Assembly (NCBI RefSeq): GCF_000482245.1
Contig: NZ_AWNH01000013.1
Span: 1-64,000 of the forward strand
Source: Leptolyngbya sp. Heron Island J
GTDB lineage: Bacteria > Cyanobacteriota > Cyanobacteriia > Phormidesmidales > Phormidesmidaceae
Direction: 5' to 3'
DNA length: 64,000 nt
Shown: piece by piece, positions 60,129 through 63,531 of the stretch
Layout of the letters: each line of letters starts with the position of its first letter
Numbering within the stretch: position 1 is the stretch's first letter
Program-made: the position numbers and the translations under genes
The notes under the pieces: model-generated
The model's input: only the letters and a program-made list of their open reading frames with translations
What the model was told of the DNA's origin: nothing
Database searches by the model: none

Positions 60129-61262
60129 TTAGGCCGACAGTAGCCCTGCACTCATCCGTTTTAACCCTCGCGTGACGACGTCGGAGTAACGCAGTTTGCC
60201 TAAGAAGACATCACCCATGATCTGTGTGCCGCGGGGATGCTTAACACCAACGCGATAGCCAATCTTGGGGGCTAGATAAAAGGCTTTAGCTAATCGAGCC
60301 GCCCAGCGCATCTCGTTGCCCCATTCCTGGATCATAGTCTGGGTATAGTCGGCCAGAGCCTGCTCATTACCGGCTAAGGCACGACGAATGGCCTCTGAGG
60401 CCTTAAGCCCACTAAAAATCGAAGGGCGAATTCCTTCAGCCGTAAATGGATCAACTACGCAGGCAGCTTCTCCAGCCAGAACCGCCTGGGTCGTATGCAG
60501 GGTCTGATCGCCATCCCAAAGACAAATGGGGTGACCGTGTTTGGTTTCTTCATTGATGTCGACGCCAAACTGTTTGGAATAGTCGGCTAGGGGCTGCACT
60601 AAATCACGGGACTTGCGTTTAGCTGAGATAAAAGCGCCGCTGCCCAAGGAGTAGCCGTCTGCTTTAGGAAAATTCCAGACGTAGCCATTTTTGAGTAAAC
60701 CAAATTCAAAATGGACAATGTGGCCATCGTGGACTGGCAGCCGGGGCTCGGTTTCAATGGCTCCGGCCATAACTGTTTTGCGTTGCTTAAACCCAAGCCA
60801 CTTGGCCATGGGGCCTTTAGCTCCATCGGCGGCAATGAGATAGCGACCCACAATGGGGGCTGCTGATGTGCTGATGTGCCAGAGGCCATCCCTAAATTCA
60901 ACGCCTGTCGCTTTAGTGCTCTCTTGCAAAATGGCTCCTTGCTTTTGAGCCTGTTGCACCATGTAGTAGTCAAACTCATCGCGACGCACCATCCAAATGG
61001 GCTCTGAGAGTTCGGCAATCACTTCATCTTCTAGGTTGTAGGTGTAGCGTACCTGGGTGACTTTTTGCGAAATCACTGCTTCAAAGTCATAGTCGAACCA
61101 TTCAGCTACTTTAGGGCATACGCCGCCACCACAGGGCTTATAACGGGGCAGTTTATGTTTTTCTAATATCAGTACGGAGTGGCCATTTTTAGCGAGGTGA
61201 TAGGCAGCCGTGGCACCAGCGGGGCCGCCACCAACAACAATGCAATCATAAATAGATGTCAT
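60129..61262 (-). CDS. Geranylgeranyl-reductase-family flavoprotein
   Basis: 377 residues from ATG 61262, where the family begins (MTSIYDCIVVGGGPAGATAAYHLA); an upstream start would add 59 unrelated residues. FAD fold GGGPAG, LPRYKPCGGGVCPK (PCGGG motif of the family), LIAADGAKGPMAKWLG, and GEAACVVDPFTAEGIRPSIF. Known: relatives reduce geranylgeranyl chains of chlorophyll, tocopherol or archaeal lipids; this is not the typical ChlP by length and sequence. It may be co-transcribed with the TetR-like regulator (79-base gap). Confidence 0.9.
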   Translation of the reverse strand: MTSIYDCIVVGGGPAGATAAYHLAKNGHSVLILEKHKLPRYKPCGGGVCPKVAEWFDYDFEAVISQKVTQVRYTYNLEDEVIAELSEPIWMVRRDEFDYYMVQQAQKQGAILQESTKATGVEFRDGLWHISTSAAPIVGRYLIAADGAKGPMAKWLGFKQRKTVMAGAIETEPRLPVHDGHIVHFEFGLLKNGYVWNFPKADGYSLGSGAFISAKRKSRDLVQPLADYSKQFGVDINEETKHGHPICLWDGDQTLHTTQAVLAGEAACVVDPFTAEGIRPSIFSGLKASEAIRRALAGNEQALADYTQTMIQEWGNEMRWAARLAKAFYLAPKIGYRVGVKHPRGTQIMGDVFLGKLRYSDVVTRGLKRMSAGLLSA

Positions 61263-61341: not shown

Positions 61342-62544
61342 TTAAGGTATTGGTTTTTTTCTGTCGAGTTGAGTGGCAGCTGCGATCGCACTTTTTTCCC
61401 TGGCCCGCTGCCCATAGGGCTCCAGTTCAGCGATCTCAAAGCCTGTCAGAATGCTTAAATTTTCCAGCGCAATCCCTCGCATCAACATTTCAACACACCA
61501 GGTTTGTTGAGCTTGTACCGGATGAGGTGTAATGCCACCAACCTCCAGCCCTTCCCACCAAAGGTCCCAACGATCATGGATATCCGCTGCGGTAATCGGT
61601 TCACCGGCGTCGTTGATAAACATGGCGGCTTCATCATCCTTGCGGAGCTTGAGCCACTTTGTCAGCGGATTATTGCTGTATGACCCATATCGTTTGCCTA
61701 AAATCCATTGATTAACCGGCACCTGGCGTGATGGATTGACCACCTGCAAAATGTGCTGAGTTTTATCGCAAATTTGGTGCGATCGCTCTAGATGAATAAT
61801 TTCCCTAGGCAATAATCCTGCTCCAAACAACACCAGTGCCAGGGCATAGTCCTGATGGCCCAAACTACGCGCCTGCTTCATCATGAAATGCACCCAGCTA
61901 GCTGGTAAATCTGCAACTCGGGGTTTGCTGGTTGGATGTGCGATCTCTGGCTCATCAAAGGCATCACTGGGTAACTCTGTGGTGCTGCCCTGAGTTCTAG
62001 TCAACACCGATACCAAGCTGTCTAAAAAATCATCGCGCCCTTGCCAGAGAGACTGCCCTCCAGTAGCTTCAATCACCGCATAGCCCACCACGAGCGAGGC
62101 CAGAATATTGGCCAACTCTGCGGCAGATGGTGTACCCTCCCCCAGCATTTGCTTTAAATGCTGCGTCATCGTCTGTCTAATTTCACTCACCCGGTGTTGC
62201 AATGCCTGCTGGTGCTCCGGCGGATATTGATCCGCTTCACCAATTAATGAACGCACAAAATTTGGAAACTGCTCGAGTAAGGACAAGCAGTTACTGGCAT
62301 AGGCTCTCAAACTATCGGATTGCGGTTCTCCATACAGTTGAGTGATTTGAGGCTCTAATGCGGGTGCTTCTTGCAATATTGCCAATAGCAACCCGTATTT
62401 ATTGCCAAAGTTACGAAATAGAGTGGCCTCATTCACCTCTGCCATATTGGCAATTTGACGGGTAGTAGTATGGCTAATTCCCTGAGATAGAAATAATTCC
62501 AGCGCTGCTTGAGTTAGCCGTTGACGAGTTGAAGGCGAGGACAT
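61342..62544 (-). CDS. TetR-type regulator fused to a degenerate tyrosine-recombinase-like domain
   Basis: 400 residues from ATG 62544; TTG 62556 is an alternative. TetR DNA-binding domain (~1-50): TRQRLTQAALELFLSQGISH, TTRQIANMAEVNEATLFRNF. Ligand/dimer part to ~185. A linker, then ~215-385 reads like a tyrosine recombinase catalytic domain: ALVLFGAGLLPREIIHL (cf. TGLRxSEL), VVNPSRQVPVNQWI, MFINDAGEPITAADIHDRW, ITPHPVQAQQTW (cf. TPHxLRHT), GIALENLSILTGF (cf. LGH) and a retained Tyr377. The catalytic Arg residues and second His are missing. Usual TetR length is ~200, so this is double. Inference: a regulator with a recruited, catalytically dead domain. Confidence 0.8.
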   Translation of the reverse strand: MSSPSTRQRLTQAALELFLSQGISHTTTRQIANMAEVNEATLFRNFGNKYGLLLAILQEAPALEPQITQLYGEPQSDSLRAYASNCLSLLEQFPNFVRSLIGEADQYPPEHQQALQHRVSEIRQTMTQHLKQMLGEGTPSAAELANILASLVVGYAVIEATGGQSLWQGRDDFLDSLVSVLTRTQGSTTELPSDAFDEPEIAHPTSKPRVADLPASWVHFMMKQARSLGHQDYALALVLFGAGLLPREIIHLERSHQICDKTQHILQVVNPSRQVPVNQWILGKRYGSYSNNPLTKWLKLRKDDEAAMFINDAGEPITAADIHDRWDLWWEGLEVGGITPHPVQAQQTWCVEMLMRGIALENLSILTGFEIAELEPYGQRAREKSAIAAATQLDRKKPIP

Positions 62545-62551
62545 CAAAAAA

Positions 62552-62568
62552 TGCAAGTATCACTTGCA
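62552..62568. promoter_or_regulatory. Operator-like palindrome 1 (TGCAAGT-ATC-ACTTGCA)
   Basis: Perfect 7-base arms around 3 bases, 7 bases before the regulator ATG on its strand. Near-identical to palindrome 2; both lie between the divergent regulator and desC. Confidence 0.75.
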
Positions 62569-62600
62569 GGTTGTGTGCAAAGTTGTTAGATTATACCCAT

Positions 62601-62617
62601 TGCAAGTGCTGCTTGCA
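62601..62617. promoter_or_regulatory. Operator-like palindrome 2 (TGCAAGT-GCT-GCTTGCA)
   Basis: Same as palindrome 1 with one arm mismatch. Centres are 49 bases apart, about five helical turns, which would suit cooperative binding. It lies 59 bases before desC. Confidence 0.7.
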
Positions 62618-62676
62618 TCTCGACACTCTAGTCAAGCAGTCACCACACTATTCAAATTTCGTGAGGAGAGTTACTA

Positions 62677-63531
62677 ATGACTACTGCGCGATTAACCCCG
62701 CCATCCCTCAATACCAAACTCCAAAAACCTGCCTTAGACTGGGTAACTCTGGGGTTTTTTGCCGTATTTCATGGGGTGGCCCTGTTGGCCCCATGGTTCT
62801 TTTCTTGGTCTGCCCTGGGCGTAGCAATTTTGCTGCACTGGCTCTGTGGTGGTGTGGGCATTTGTCTAGGATTTCACCGACTGCTCAGCCATCGTAGCTT
62901 TCAGGTGCCACGGTGGTTGGAATATCCAATCGCTGTGCTAGGGACACTTGCAATGGAAGGCGGTCCAATTTTCTGGGTCAGCGGTCATCGTAAGCATCAT
63001 GCATTTACAGAGGATATTGATAAAGATCCCTACTCCGCTAAGCGGGGATTTTGGTGGAGCCACATGCTTTGGATTCTGTACCCCCAGCGCGACAACTTCA
63101 AGCAAGAACGTTATGCCAAGTATGCGCCTGACTTAATGCGTCAGCCTTTCTATCGCTTTTTGAATAATTATTTTCTATTGCTTCAAGTGCCACTTGCACT
63201 ATTGCTATATGCCATTGGTGGTTGGTCCTTTGTTATTTACGGTATCTTTGTTCGAGCTGTTCTACTTTGGCATGCCACTTGGTTAGTTAACTCAGCTACC
63301 CATACTTGGGGCTACCGTACCTTTCACACTAAAGATAATGCCCGTAACCTTTGGTGGGTTTCCCTGGTGACCTATGGAGAAGGCTGGCATAACAACCACC
63401 ATACTTATCCACGAGCAGCTCAAACGGGTTGGAAATGGTGGGAAATCGACGTCACCTGGTATACCATTCAGCTATTTGAGCGACTGGGCTGGGCCACCAA
63501 AGTTAAACGGATTCCAGCGGTGCGTCGCTAA
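62677..63531 (+). CDS. desC: Acyl-lipid delta-9 desaturase
   Basis: 284 residues. Three His boxes: HRLLSH (67-72), HRKHH (104-108) and HNNHH (238-242), with membrane segments before and between (~24-58, ~164-200). Introduces the first double bond in membrane acyl chains. The TetR-like gene is divergent, with two palindromes between, so desC is likely its target. A third, weaker copy of the palindrome is inside the gene at 63182-63198. Confidence 0.95.
   Translation: MTTARLTPPSLNTKLQKPALDWVTLGFFAVFHGVALLAPWFFSWSALGVAILLHWLCGGVGICLGFHRLLSHRSFQVPRWLEYPIAVLGTLAMEGGPIFWVSGHRKHHAFTEDIDKDPYSAKRGFWWSHMLWILYPQRDNFKQERYAKYAPDLMRQPFYRFLNNYFLLLQVPLALLLYAIGGWSFVIYGIFVRAVLLWHATWLVNSATHTWGYRTFHTKDNARNLWWVSLVTYGEGWHNNHHTYPRAAQTGWKWWEIDVTWYTIQLFERLGWATKVKRIPAVRR
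63182..63198. promoter_or_regulatory. Possible third operator copy inside desC
   Basis: TTCAAGT-GCC-ACTTGCA: 5-base complementary core arms; differs from palindrome 1 only in the outer left and spacer bases. It may be chance, being in coding DNA (LLQVPLALL). Confidence 0.3.

What the first reader, a model, noticed from the sequence alone, without database searches (positions are those of the whole stretch)
61342..63531. TetR regulator fused to a dead tyrosine-recombinase-like domain, divergent from desC with paired palindromes
Seen: the regulator is 400 residues rather than ~200, and its C-terminal half follows the tyrosine recombinase order (GLLPREI, TPHPVQ, LTGF, Tyr377) with the catalytic Arg and His positions changed. 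Two near-identical 17-bp palindromes sit between it and a desaturase gene. Inference: a recombinase domain has been recruited as a DNA- or ligand-binding module, possibly letting one protein bridge the two sites 49 bases apart, to control membrane lipid desaturation.
Basis: partly seen in the sequence, partly recalled or inferred. Interest (0 to 1): 0.7.

Follow-up and report, generated by a model that had tools for sequence, protein, structure and literature searches.

The report
TetR repressor fused to dead recombinase
Many cyanobacteria carry, beside the gene for a membrane-lipid desaturase, what looks like a dedicated regulator that joins an ordinary repressor to a worn-out DNA recombinase, with two likely binding sites framing the desaturase promoter; what the dead recombinase half does is the open question.

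Summary
The 400-aa protein (61342-62544, -) is a TetR-family regulator plus a C-terminal tyrosine-recombinase (YR) catalytic fold: modelled alone, the domain has pLDDT 92 and matches XerA at Z 20. It is dead: first Arg 0/52, His 0/52, second Arg 3/52; Tyr kept in 46/52. Among 123 distinct fusion proteins examined (best matches, not a random sample), each lies beside a desC-like gene with two 17-bp palindromes near the desC start. 122 are divergent; in the exception tetR is inverted but both sites stay with desC. Genome-wide, the exact degenerate palindrome occurs only at these two sites.

The bridging inference is not shown. Palindrome 1 supplies an inferred desC -35, 17 bp lead to an extended -10, and palindrome 2 covers the start site, so promoter geometry explains the spacing (42-53 bp; 72-85 in one clade). 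One ortholog without the YR domain, in a one-contig genome, keeps two sites 47 bp apart. However, the orthologs seen with one site all lack the domain.

Best reading: a desC-dedicated repressor with a domesticated, inactive YR accessory domain, probably an oligomer or DNA clamp. New variant: dead-YR repressors (MrpR) and TetR desaturase regulators (DesT) are known apart. My paper searches listed no report of this fusion.

The parts
61342..62544 (-). CDS (stop included) of the 400-aa TetR/dead-tyrosine-recombinase fusion regulator
   Evidence: homologs
62377..62514 (-). TetR_N helix-turn-helix domain, residues 11-56
   Evidence: PF00440 E 7.4e-12
61987..62364 (-). TetR-type C-terminal helical domain, about residues 61-186
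   Evidence: AF2 helices and TetR structures over model residues 1-194, Z about 15
61921..61986 (-). linker, residues 187-208; pLDDT under 50 over 186-206, 10-39 aa over the near-equal columns 187-210, 10% mean identity over 187-208
61357..61920 (-). inactive tyrosine-recombinase catalytic-fold domain, residues 209-396 (Tyr377 codon 61414-61416)
62552..62568 (.). operator 1 (inferred), TGCAAGTATCACTTGCA, begins 8 nt from the first base of the tetR ATG
62601..62617 (.). operator 2 (inferred), TGCAAGTGCTGCTTGCA
62564..62569 (+). inferred desC -35 hexamer TTGCAG, five bases of it inside operator 1
   Evidence: the single-sequence consensus scan did not call it
62584..62592 (+). inferred desC extended -10 (TGT TAGATT), 17 bp after the -35
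   Evidence: column conservation in 69 non-redundant loci
62590..62595 (-). possible tetR -10 (TATAAT on the - strand), overlapping the desC -10; inference from this sequence only
62677..63531 (+). desC-like desaturase, 284 aa (the name desC is by similarity to acyl-CoA desaturases, size and histidine boxes, not an equivalog match)
   Evidence: PF00487 E 5.6e-21; NCBIfam DesA family far below cutoff; acyl-CoA desaturase 1 (4ymk) E 5e-32

Best explanation
A dedicated repressor of desC. The TetR half, as a dimer, binds two 17-bp operators that frame the desC core promoter: operator 1 contains the -35 hexamer, operator 2 covers the transcription start, so binding shuts RNA polymerase out (site layout shown by comparison; binding and repression inferred). 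Operator 1 also lies just before the tetR start codon, so autoregulation is likely (inferred). The C-terminal half is a domesticated tyrosine-recombinase catalytic domain that cannot recombine DNA, tied on by a floppy linker (from profile, model and residue loss). Its most likely job is to hold two dimers together and/or clamp the promoter DNA between them, making repression tighter or switchable (inference, about 45%); docking a partner protein about 25%, sensing a small molecule about 15%, only structural about 15%. The signal is probably an acyl-lipid state, bound in the TetR-type pocket (inference by analogy with DesT).
For: Fold and fusion. Dead site. Beside desC: 163 of 164 loci divergent (some genomes twice). 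Of 123 distinct fusions, 121 divergent with two sites and the last two settled. Strict operator only here in the genome. Promoter between the sites: best -10 exactly 19 nt after operator 1 in 52 of 69 non-redundant loci; T19, A20, T24 at 97, 86, 88% and T16, G17 at 81, 88%. In L068 (G074) tetR is inverted, yet both perfect sites stay upstream of desC and none (up to 3 mismatches) is upstream of tetR, so the pair belongs to desC. YR domain under purifying selection, median dN/dS 0.13 in 40 pairs drawn from 115. YR half basic (mean pI 8.6) against an acidic TetR-C (4.9). MrpR, a dead YR, is a DNA-binding repressor whose leftover Tyr seems crucial for DNA binding (passages of PMC10516654).
Against: No expression, binding or ligand data. 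The plain sigma-70 scan finds no promoter here (0 sites); by my count the hexamers match 3/6 and 4/6. In the clade L011, L015-L017 operator 1 lies 72-85 bp away and is not the -35. The YR domain is absent in G085 with both operators in place, so it is not needed for the two-site layout. dN/dS of the YR half (0.13) exceeds that of the TetR halves (0.03). Beyond the operators with their flanking A/T and the -10 there are no conserved bases that would argue for a separate sequence-specific YR site. The 123 proteins are best matches, so they are not a fair sample of the class.
Confidence: 0.66

Rival explanations
1. The YR domain is the bridge: two dimers, one on each operator, join through recombinase-type contacts into a tetramer, looping or clamping the promoter, and the spacing is kept for that.
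For: All 123 distinct fusions examined have two operators. The orthologs seen with a single site (G066, G090, G103, G264) all lack the YR domain; G264 belongs to a family (f23) whose other members in the tree are fusions and falls among them, so domain and second site may have gone together, though its branch is long and its place unsure. YR enzymes dimerise or tetramerise on DNA (PMC10293859 passages).
Against: Spacing follows the promoter and covers 42-53 bp, about a full helical turn (my arithmetic at 10.5 bp), and 72-85 bp. G085 keeps two sites at 47 bp without the domain. G157, also without it, has a second weaker site at 49 bp.
Confidence: 0.3
2. The YR domain is a docking platform: an unknown partner binds it to lift repression, as an antirepressor does for a dead-YR phage repressor.
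For: The PDB holds a SroF-Sar repressor-antirepressor complex, SroF matching the domain at Z 12.9, and the XerD C-terminal domain with FtsK gamma at Z 12.6 (titles only). The patch R273-D303 is strongly conserved without catalytic need.
Against: No third conserved gene was seen in the 19 loci where I listed the longest neighbouring frames, but I compared only lengths and part of the sequences.
Confidence: 0.22
3. The YR domain is a degenerate passenger with no role beyond stability.
For: Absent in G085 and in G264, both among fusions in the tree, the latter on a long, unsure branch; higher dN/dS than the TetR half.
Against: 25 invariant columns among 52 members in the domain, dN/dS 0.13, spread over many families of the class.
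Confidence: 0.13
4. The two palindromes mainly serve tetR autoregulation rather than desC.
For: Operator 1 begins 8 nt from the tetR ATG in the window.
Against: In L068 tetR is inverted and both sites stay with desC; operator 1 lies 7 to 399 nt from the matched tetR start across the 120 loci listed, while the -10 keeps its place.
Confidence: 0.05

Closest known systems
MrpR/YopR, master repressor of Bacillus prophage SPbeta (and SroF of phi3T)
   Same: Tyrosine-recombinase fold with most catalytic residues lost, Tyr kept, acting as a transcription repressor (PMC10516654, passages); YopR 8bpz Z 12.2, MrpR 8a0a Z 11.8, SroF 9rgl Z 12.9 to the model
   Different: MrpR keeps a core-binding domain and is a phage regulator; here a TetR half stands in the place of the core-binding domain and the likely target is a host lipid gene
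DesT of Pseudomonas aeruginosa (TetR)
   Same: TetR-like repressor of a fatty-acid desaturase operon (PMC3536700, passages)
   Different: No YR domain that I know of (recalled); responds to acyl-CoA; not compared by sequence here
TnsF of Tn6022-like Tn7 transposons
   Same: Inactivated YR domain joined to another DNA-binding module, used for DNA target selection (PMC10293859, passages)
   Different: Zinc fingers, transposon targeting, not gene regulation
Crypton-derived DUF3504 proteins (KCTD1, ZMYM2-4, QRICH1, WOC)
   Same: Domesticated YR lacking most of the catalytic tetrad, many in regulators with other DNA-binding domains (PMC3212892, abstract)
   Different: Eukaryotic, separate origin
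XerA/XerC/XerH tyrosine recombinases
   Same: Catalytic-domain fold and profile match
   Different: Active site lost; core-binding domain absent

Membership tests
TetR family of regulators | N-terminal TetR helix-turn-helix above curated cutoff | tested here: met
   PF00440 45.3 bits against 24
TetR family of regulators | Helical C-terminal ligand/dimer domain following the HTH | tested here: met
   AF2 helices 49-188; TetR structures over residues 1-194, Z about 15
TetR family of regulators | Palindromic operators in the promoter region of the target | tested here: met
   as sequence; binding itself not tested
TetR family of regulators | Small-molecule release from DNA | not testable with these tools
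   needs ligand assay
Tyrosine recombinases | Catalytic-domain fold | tested here: met
   Z 20.1 to XerA, 176 residues; profile E 1.3e-7 to 4a8e
Tyrosine recombinases | R-K-H-R-H/W-Y active site | tested here: not met
   Arg1 0/52, His 0/52, Arg2 3/52, His/Trp position 0 His and 15 Trp of 52, Tyr 46/52; a Lys in the hairpin columns in 3/52 (columns by the alignment)
Tyrosine recombinases | N-terminal core-binding domain | tested here: not met
   the N-terminal half is TetR
Tyrosine recombinases | DNA strand cleavage and exchange | not testable with these tools
   needs an in vitro assay; not expected
MrpR-type dead-YR repressors | YR fold with lost catalysis | tested here: met
   loss of activity judged from residues only
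MrpR-type dead-YR repressors | Core-binding plus catalytic-fold two-domain layout | tested here: not met
   N-terminal half is TetR
MrpR-type dead-YR repressors | Phage-borne | tested here: inconclusive
   no relative in phage records or, by three short patterns, in viral contigs; the spread over the class beside desC suggests a host gene
DesT-like TetR desaturase regulators | Regulates a fatty-acid desaturase gene it neighbours | tested here: inconclusive
   neighbourhood and operator-like sites met; regulation not tested
DesT-like TetR desaturase regulators | Sequence orthology to DesT | not tested
   DesT sequence not fetched

The most novel reading that the evidence does not exclude
Recombinase synapsis reused as a repression switch: the dead YR domains of two TetR dimers swap C-terminal helices as Xer proteins do, lock the two operators and the desC promoter into a synapse-like closed complex, and membrane-lipid state is read as the making or breaking of that complex.
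Probability: 0.2. Interest if true: 0.8.

Novelty: new variant of a known kind. Interest (0 to 1): 0.6.

Why it matters
Cyanobacteria tune membrane fluidity through desaturases (established knowledge). This points to a single-target local regulator of desC, spread over many families of the class, that the one annotated copy I saw names simply a TetR/AcrR family regulator. It is also a case of a host regulator built by joining a repressor to a domesticated, inactive recombinase, with natural variants (missing domain, inverted gene, stretched spacing) that make the job of the dead domain directly testable.

Tried and rejected
Bridging as the cause of the fixed 49-bp spacing: tested through promoter layout and spacing spread, not supported as the cause. 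Short orthologs as proof about site number: G259 and G305 looked short but their frames run to a contig end, so they are not evidence; only G085, G264 and the f5 genomes count, and for f5 it is open whether the domain was lost or never gained (long branch). A separate YR binding motif next to the operators: no conserved columns beyond the operators with flanking A/T and the -10. A wider regulon: strict pattern nowhere else in the own genome; in the 19 genomes (own genome included) the one-mismatch matches away from the pair number about 9 by my count, against 23 for the reversed control. Viral or phage source of the domain: 44 pattern matches in viral contigs, none a relative, and no match in phage records. 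One plasmid copy over the whole protein, again beside a desaturase, sites 47 bp apart. Fusions outside cyanobacteria were not searched; how many of the 194 phylum genomes lie outside the class is not shown. Papers: eight searches bear on the fusion or on regulation of desC and two on comparators; the listings showed nothing on this fusion or on a TetR regulator of cyanobacterial desC, but I read listings, not every paper. Rows left out: L047-L066 (short flanks, some of their genomes not otherwise fetched); near-identical intergenic sequences. One search merged proteins identical over about residues 11-180 and, where three or more sites were found, set aside those over 330 nt from tetR; one search shows seven loci (the window three times among them) with such a third match.

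Full report
What is there. On the - strand, 61342-62544, lies a 400-aa protein. Its first half is TetR (PF00440, E 7.4e-12). Its second half is weakly a phage integrase by itself (PF00589, E 0.0016, below cutoff), but 44 of 52 relatives hit PF00589 singly at E <= 0.01. Family profiles hit the archaeal Xer recombinase 4a8e at E 1.3e-7, 8.6e-5 and 1.6e-6. AF2 gives pLDDT 84.8 for the whole protein, with residues 186-206 below 50 and pTM 0.51, so the order of the two halves in space is not defined. The domain alone gives pLDDT 92.1 and pTM 0.87. The best structural matches to the domain are XerA (Z 20.1), 4a8e (17.5), XerH (17.2) and Cre-type (about 15); YopR/MrpR and SroF, phage proteins, come at about 12 to 13. 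YopR/MrpR is the dead-recombinase repressor of PMC10516654; SroF is called a repressor in its PDB title.

Dead site. In the 52-member alignment the first catalytic Arg position (245) holds Arg in 0 of 52, the His position (343) His in 0, the second Arg (346) Arg in 3, the His/Trp position (369) 15 Trp and no His, the Glu (248) is kept in 51, Tyr377 in 46, and a Lys stands in the hairpin columns in 3 (one search printed only the six commonest letters, all). Column assignment rests on the profile alignment to 4a8e; the list of active-site positions is that of the MrpR paper (passages). The domain is not decaying freely: mean pairwise column identity is 0.64 against 0.61 for the TetR-C part and 0.79 for the HTH, and median dN/dS is 0.13 over 40 pairs, though higher than for the HTH (0.027, 34 pairs) and TetR-C (0.031, 36 pairs); pairs were drawn at random from 115 of 80-97% identity, and pairs with dS of 3 or more were dropped.

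Spread. All 63 genomes of the family have some match at E <= 0.001, some of them only paralogous TetRs. In the class, 199 of 388 genomes have a match at E <= 1e-20, a count that includes the short forms and fragments. With the recombinase half alone, 20 of 194 genomes drawn from the phylum matched at E <= 1e-8, all in the same class. Named examples include Nostoc, Calothrix, Spirulina, Acaryochloris and Leptolyngbya PCC 6406 (the best 80 of 535 confirmed stretches). Loci L047-L066 were not used in the later counts.

Partner gene. In 163 of 164 loci a desC-like gene is divergent (genomes may appear twice). After merging identical proteins there are 131 proteins, 123 fusions and 8 without the domain or cut by a contig end. 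Of the 123, 121 are divergent from desC with exactly two palindromes (up to three mismatches) under the filter told in Tried and rejected. Of the other two, L082 has two at 46 bp in a long gap, and L068 has tetR turned round with two perfect sites 48 bp apart still upstream of desC. A plasmid of Gloeothece citriformis PCC 7424 carries the same pair and sites, annotated as TetR/AcrR regulator and fatty acid desaturase. In six genomes without a match to the regulator (G110, G079, G080, G083, G153, G187), and in G067, G073, G077 and G123, the 14 desC-like loci of these genomes had no palindrome near by with up to three mismatches, apart from one three-mismatch match inside a gene.

Promoter. In 69 non-redundant loci with spacing under 60 the columns after operator 1 show TG at 16-17 and TA...T at 19-24. 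The best-scoring -10 starts exactly at 19 in 52 of 69, and within 17-21 in 86% against 28% for shuffled spacers; mean scores differ only modestly (4.75 against 3.96). That places a -35 at TTGCAn, five bases of it inside operator 1, and operator 2 mostly 5-7 nt after the best-scoring -10 (49 of 69), hence over the start site. A plain consensus scan of the window alone finds no promoter. Spacing among the 123 fusions: 47 in 48, 46 in 28, 48 in 19, 49 in 9, then 52 (5), 45 and 50 (2 each) and single cases at 42, 44, 51, 53, 72, 83, 84, 85, plus 46 and 48 for L082 and L068. In L015-L017 a separate TTG-type -35 seems to stand before the -10 (my reading). I conclude that the promoter, not the protein's reach, best explains the usual distance.

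Role of the dead domain. Orthologs without it: G085 (one contig, two sites at 47 bp), G066, G090 and G103 (one site), G157 (two, the second with two mismatches), G264 (one site; among fusions of its own family in the tree, on a long branch whose place the program calls unsure). G085 and G066 have no match to the domain elsewhere in the genome at E <= 1e-5. So the domain is not needed for recognising the operator, and the two-site layout can exist without it, but single-site loci were seen only where it is missing. The numbers are small and the genomes related, so this is a hint for cooperativity, not proof. The linker is poorly conserved and varies in length; the domain is basic, TetR-C acidic. 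MrpR shows that a dead recombinase with its Tyr kept can be a DNA-binding repressor (PMC10516654, passages), and TnsF and Crypton proteins show other reuse (PMC10293859, passages; PMC3212892, abstract).

Novelty. The two halves are each a known kind; their fusion as a single-target desC regulator was not in the listings of the literature searches I ran (given under Tried and rejected). I score it a new variant with fair interest.

Noticed in passing
window 63182-63198: A third, one-mismatch palindrome (TTCAAGTGCCACTTGCA) inside desC, at codons for Gln-Val-Pro-Leu-Ala; similar matches at the same place in several loci of the genus and family, not in most others. Could be codon constraint or a downstream auxiliary operator.
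   Followed up: partly
window 62552-62568 and the T run down to 62544, - strand: Operator 1 followed by TTTTTT just before the tetR ATG looks like a weak intrinsic terminator (7-bp stem); A runs left of operator 1 occur in many loci.
   Followed up: no
L209 1046-3785: On plasmid pP742403 of Gloeothece citriformis PCC 7424 the desaturase-tetR pair sits next to an orange-carotenoid-protein N-terminal-domain gene and an ssl1498-family light-harvesting-like gene.
   Followed up: no
L011, L015-L017: Clade in which operator 1 lies 72-85 bp from operator 2 and has no contact with the -35.
   Followed up: partly
window 60129-61262: A FAD-dependent reductase-like frame (start MTSIYDCIVVGGGPAGA) follows tetR on the same strand about 80 bp on; identity by eye, possible co-transcription.
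   Followed up: no
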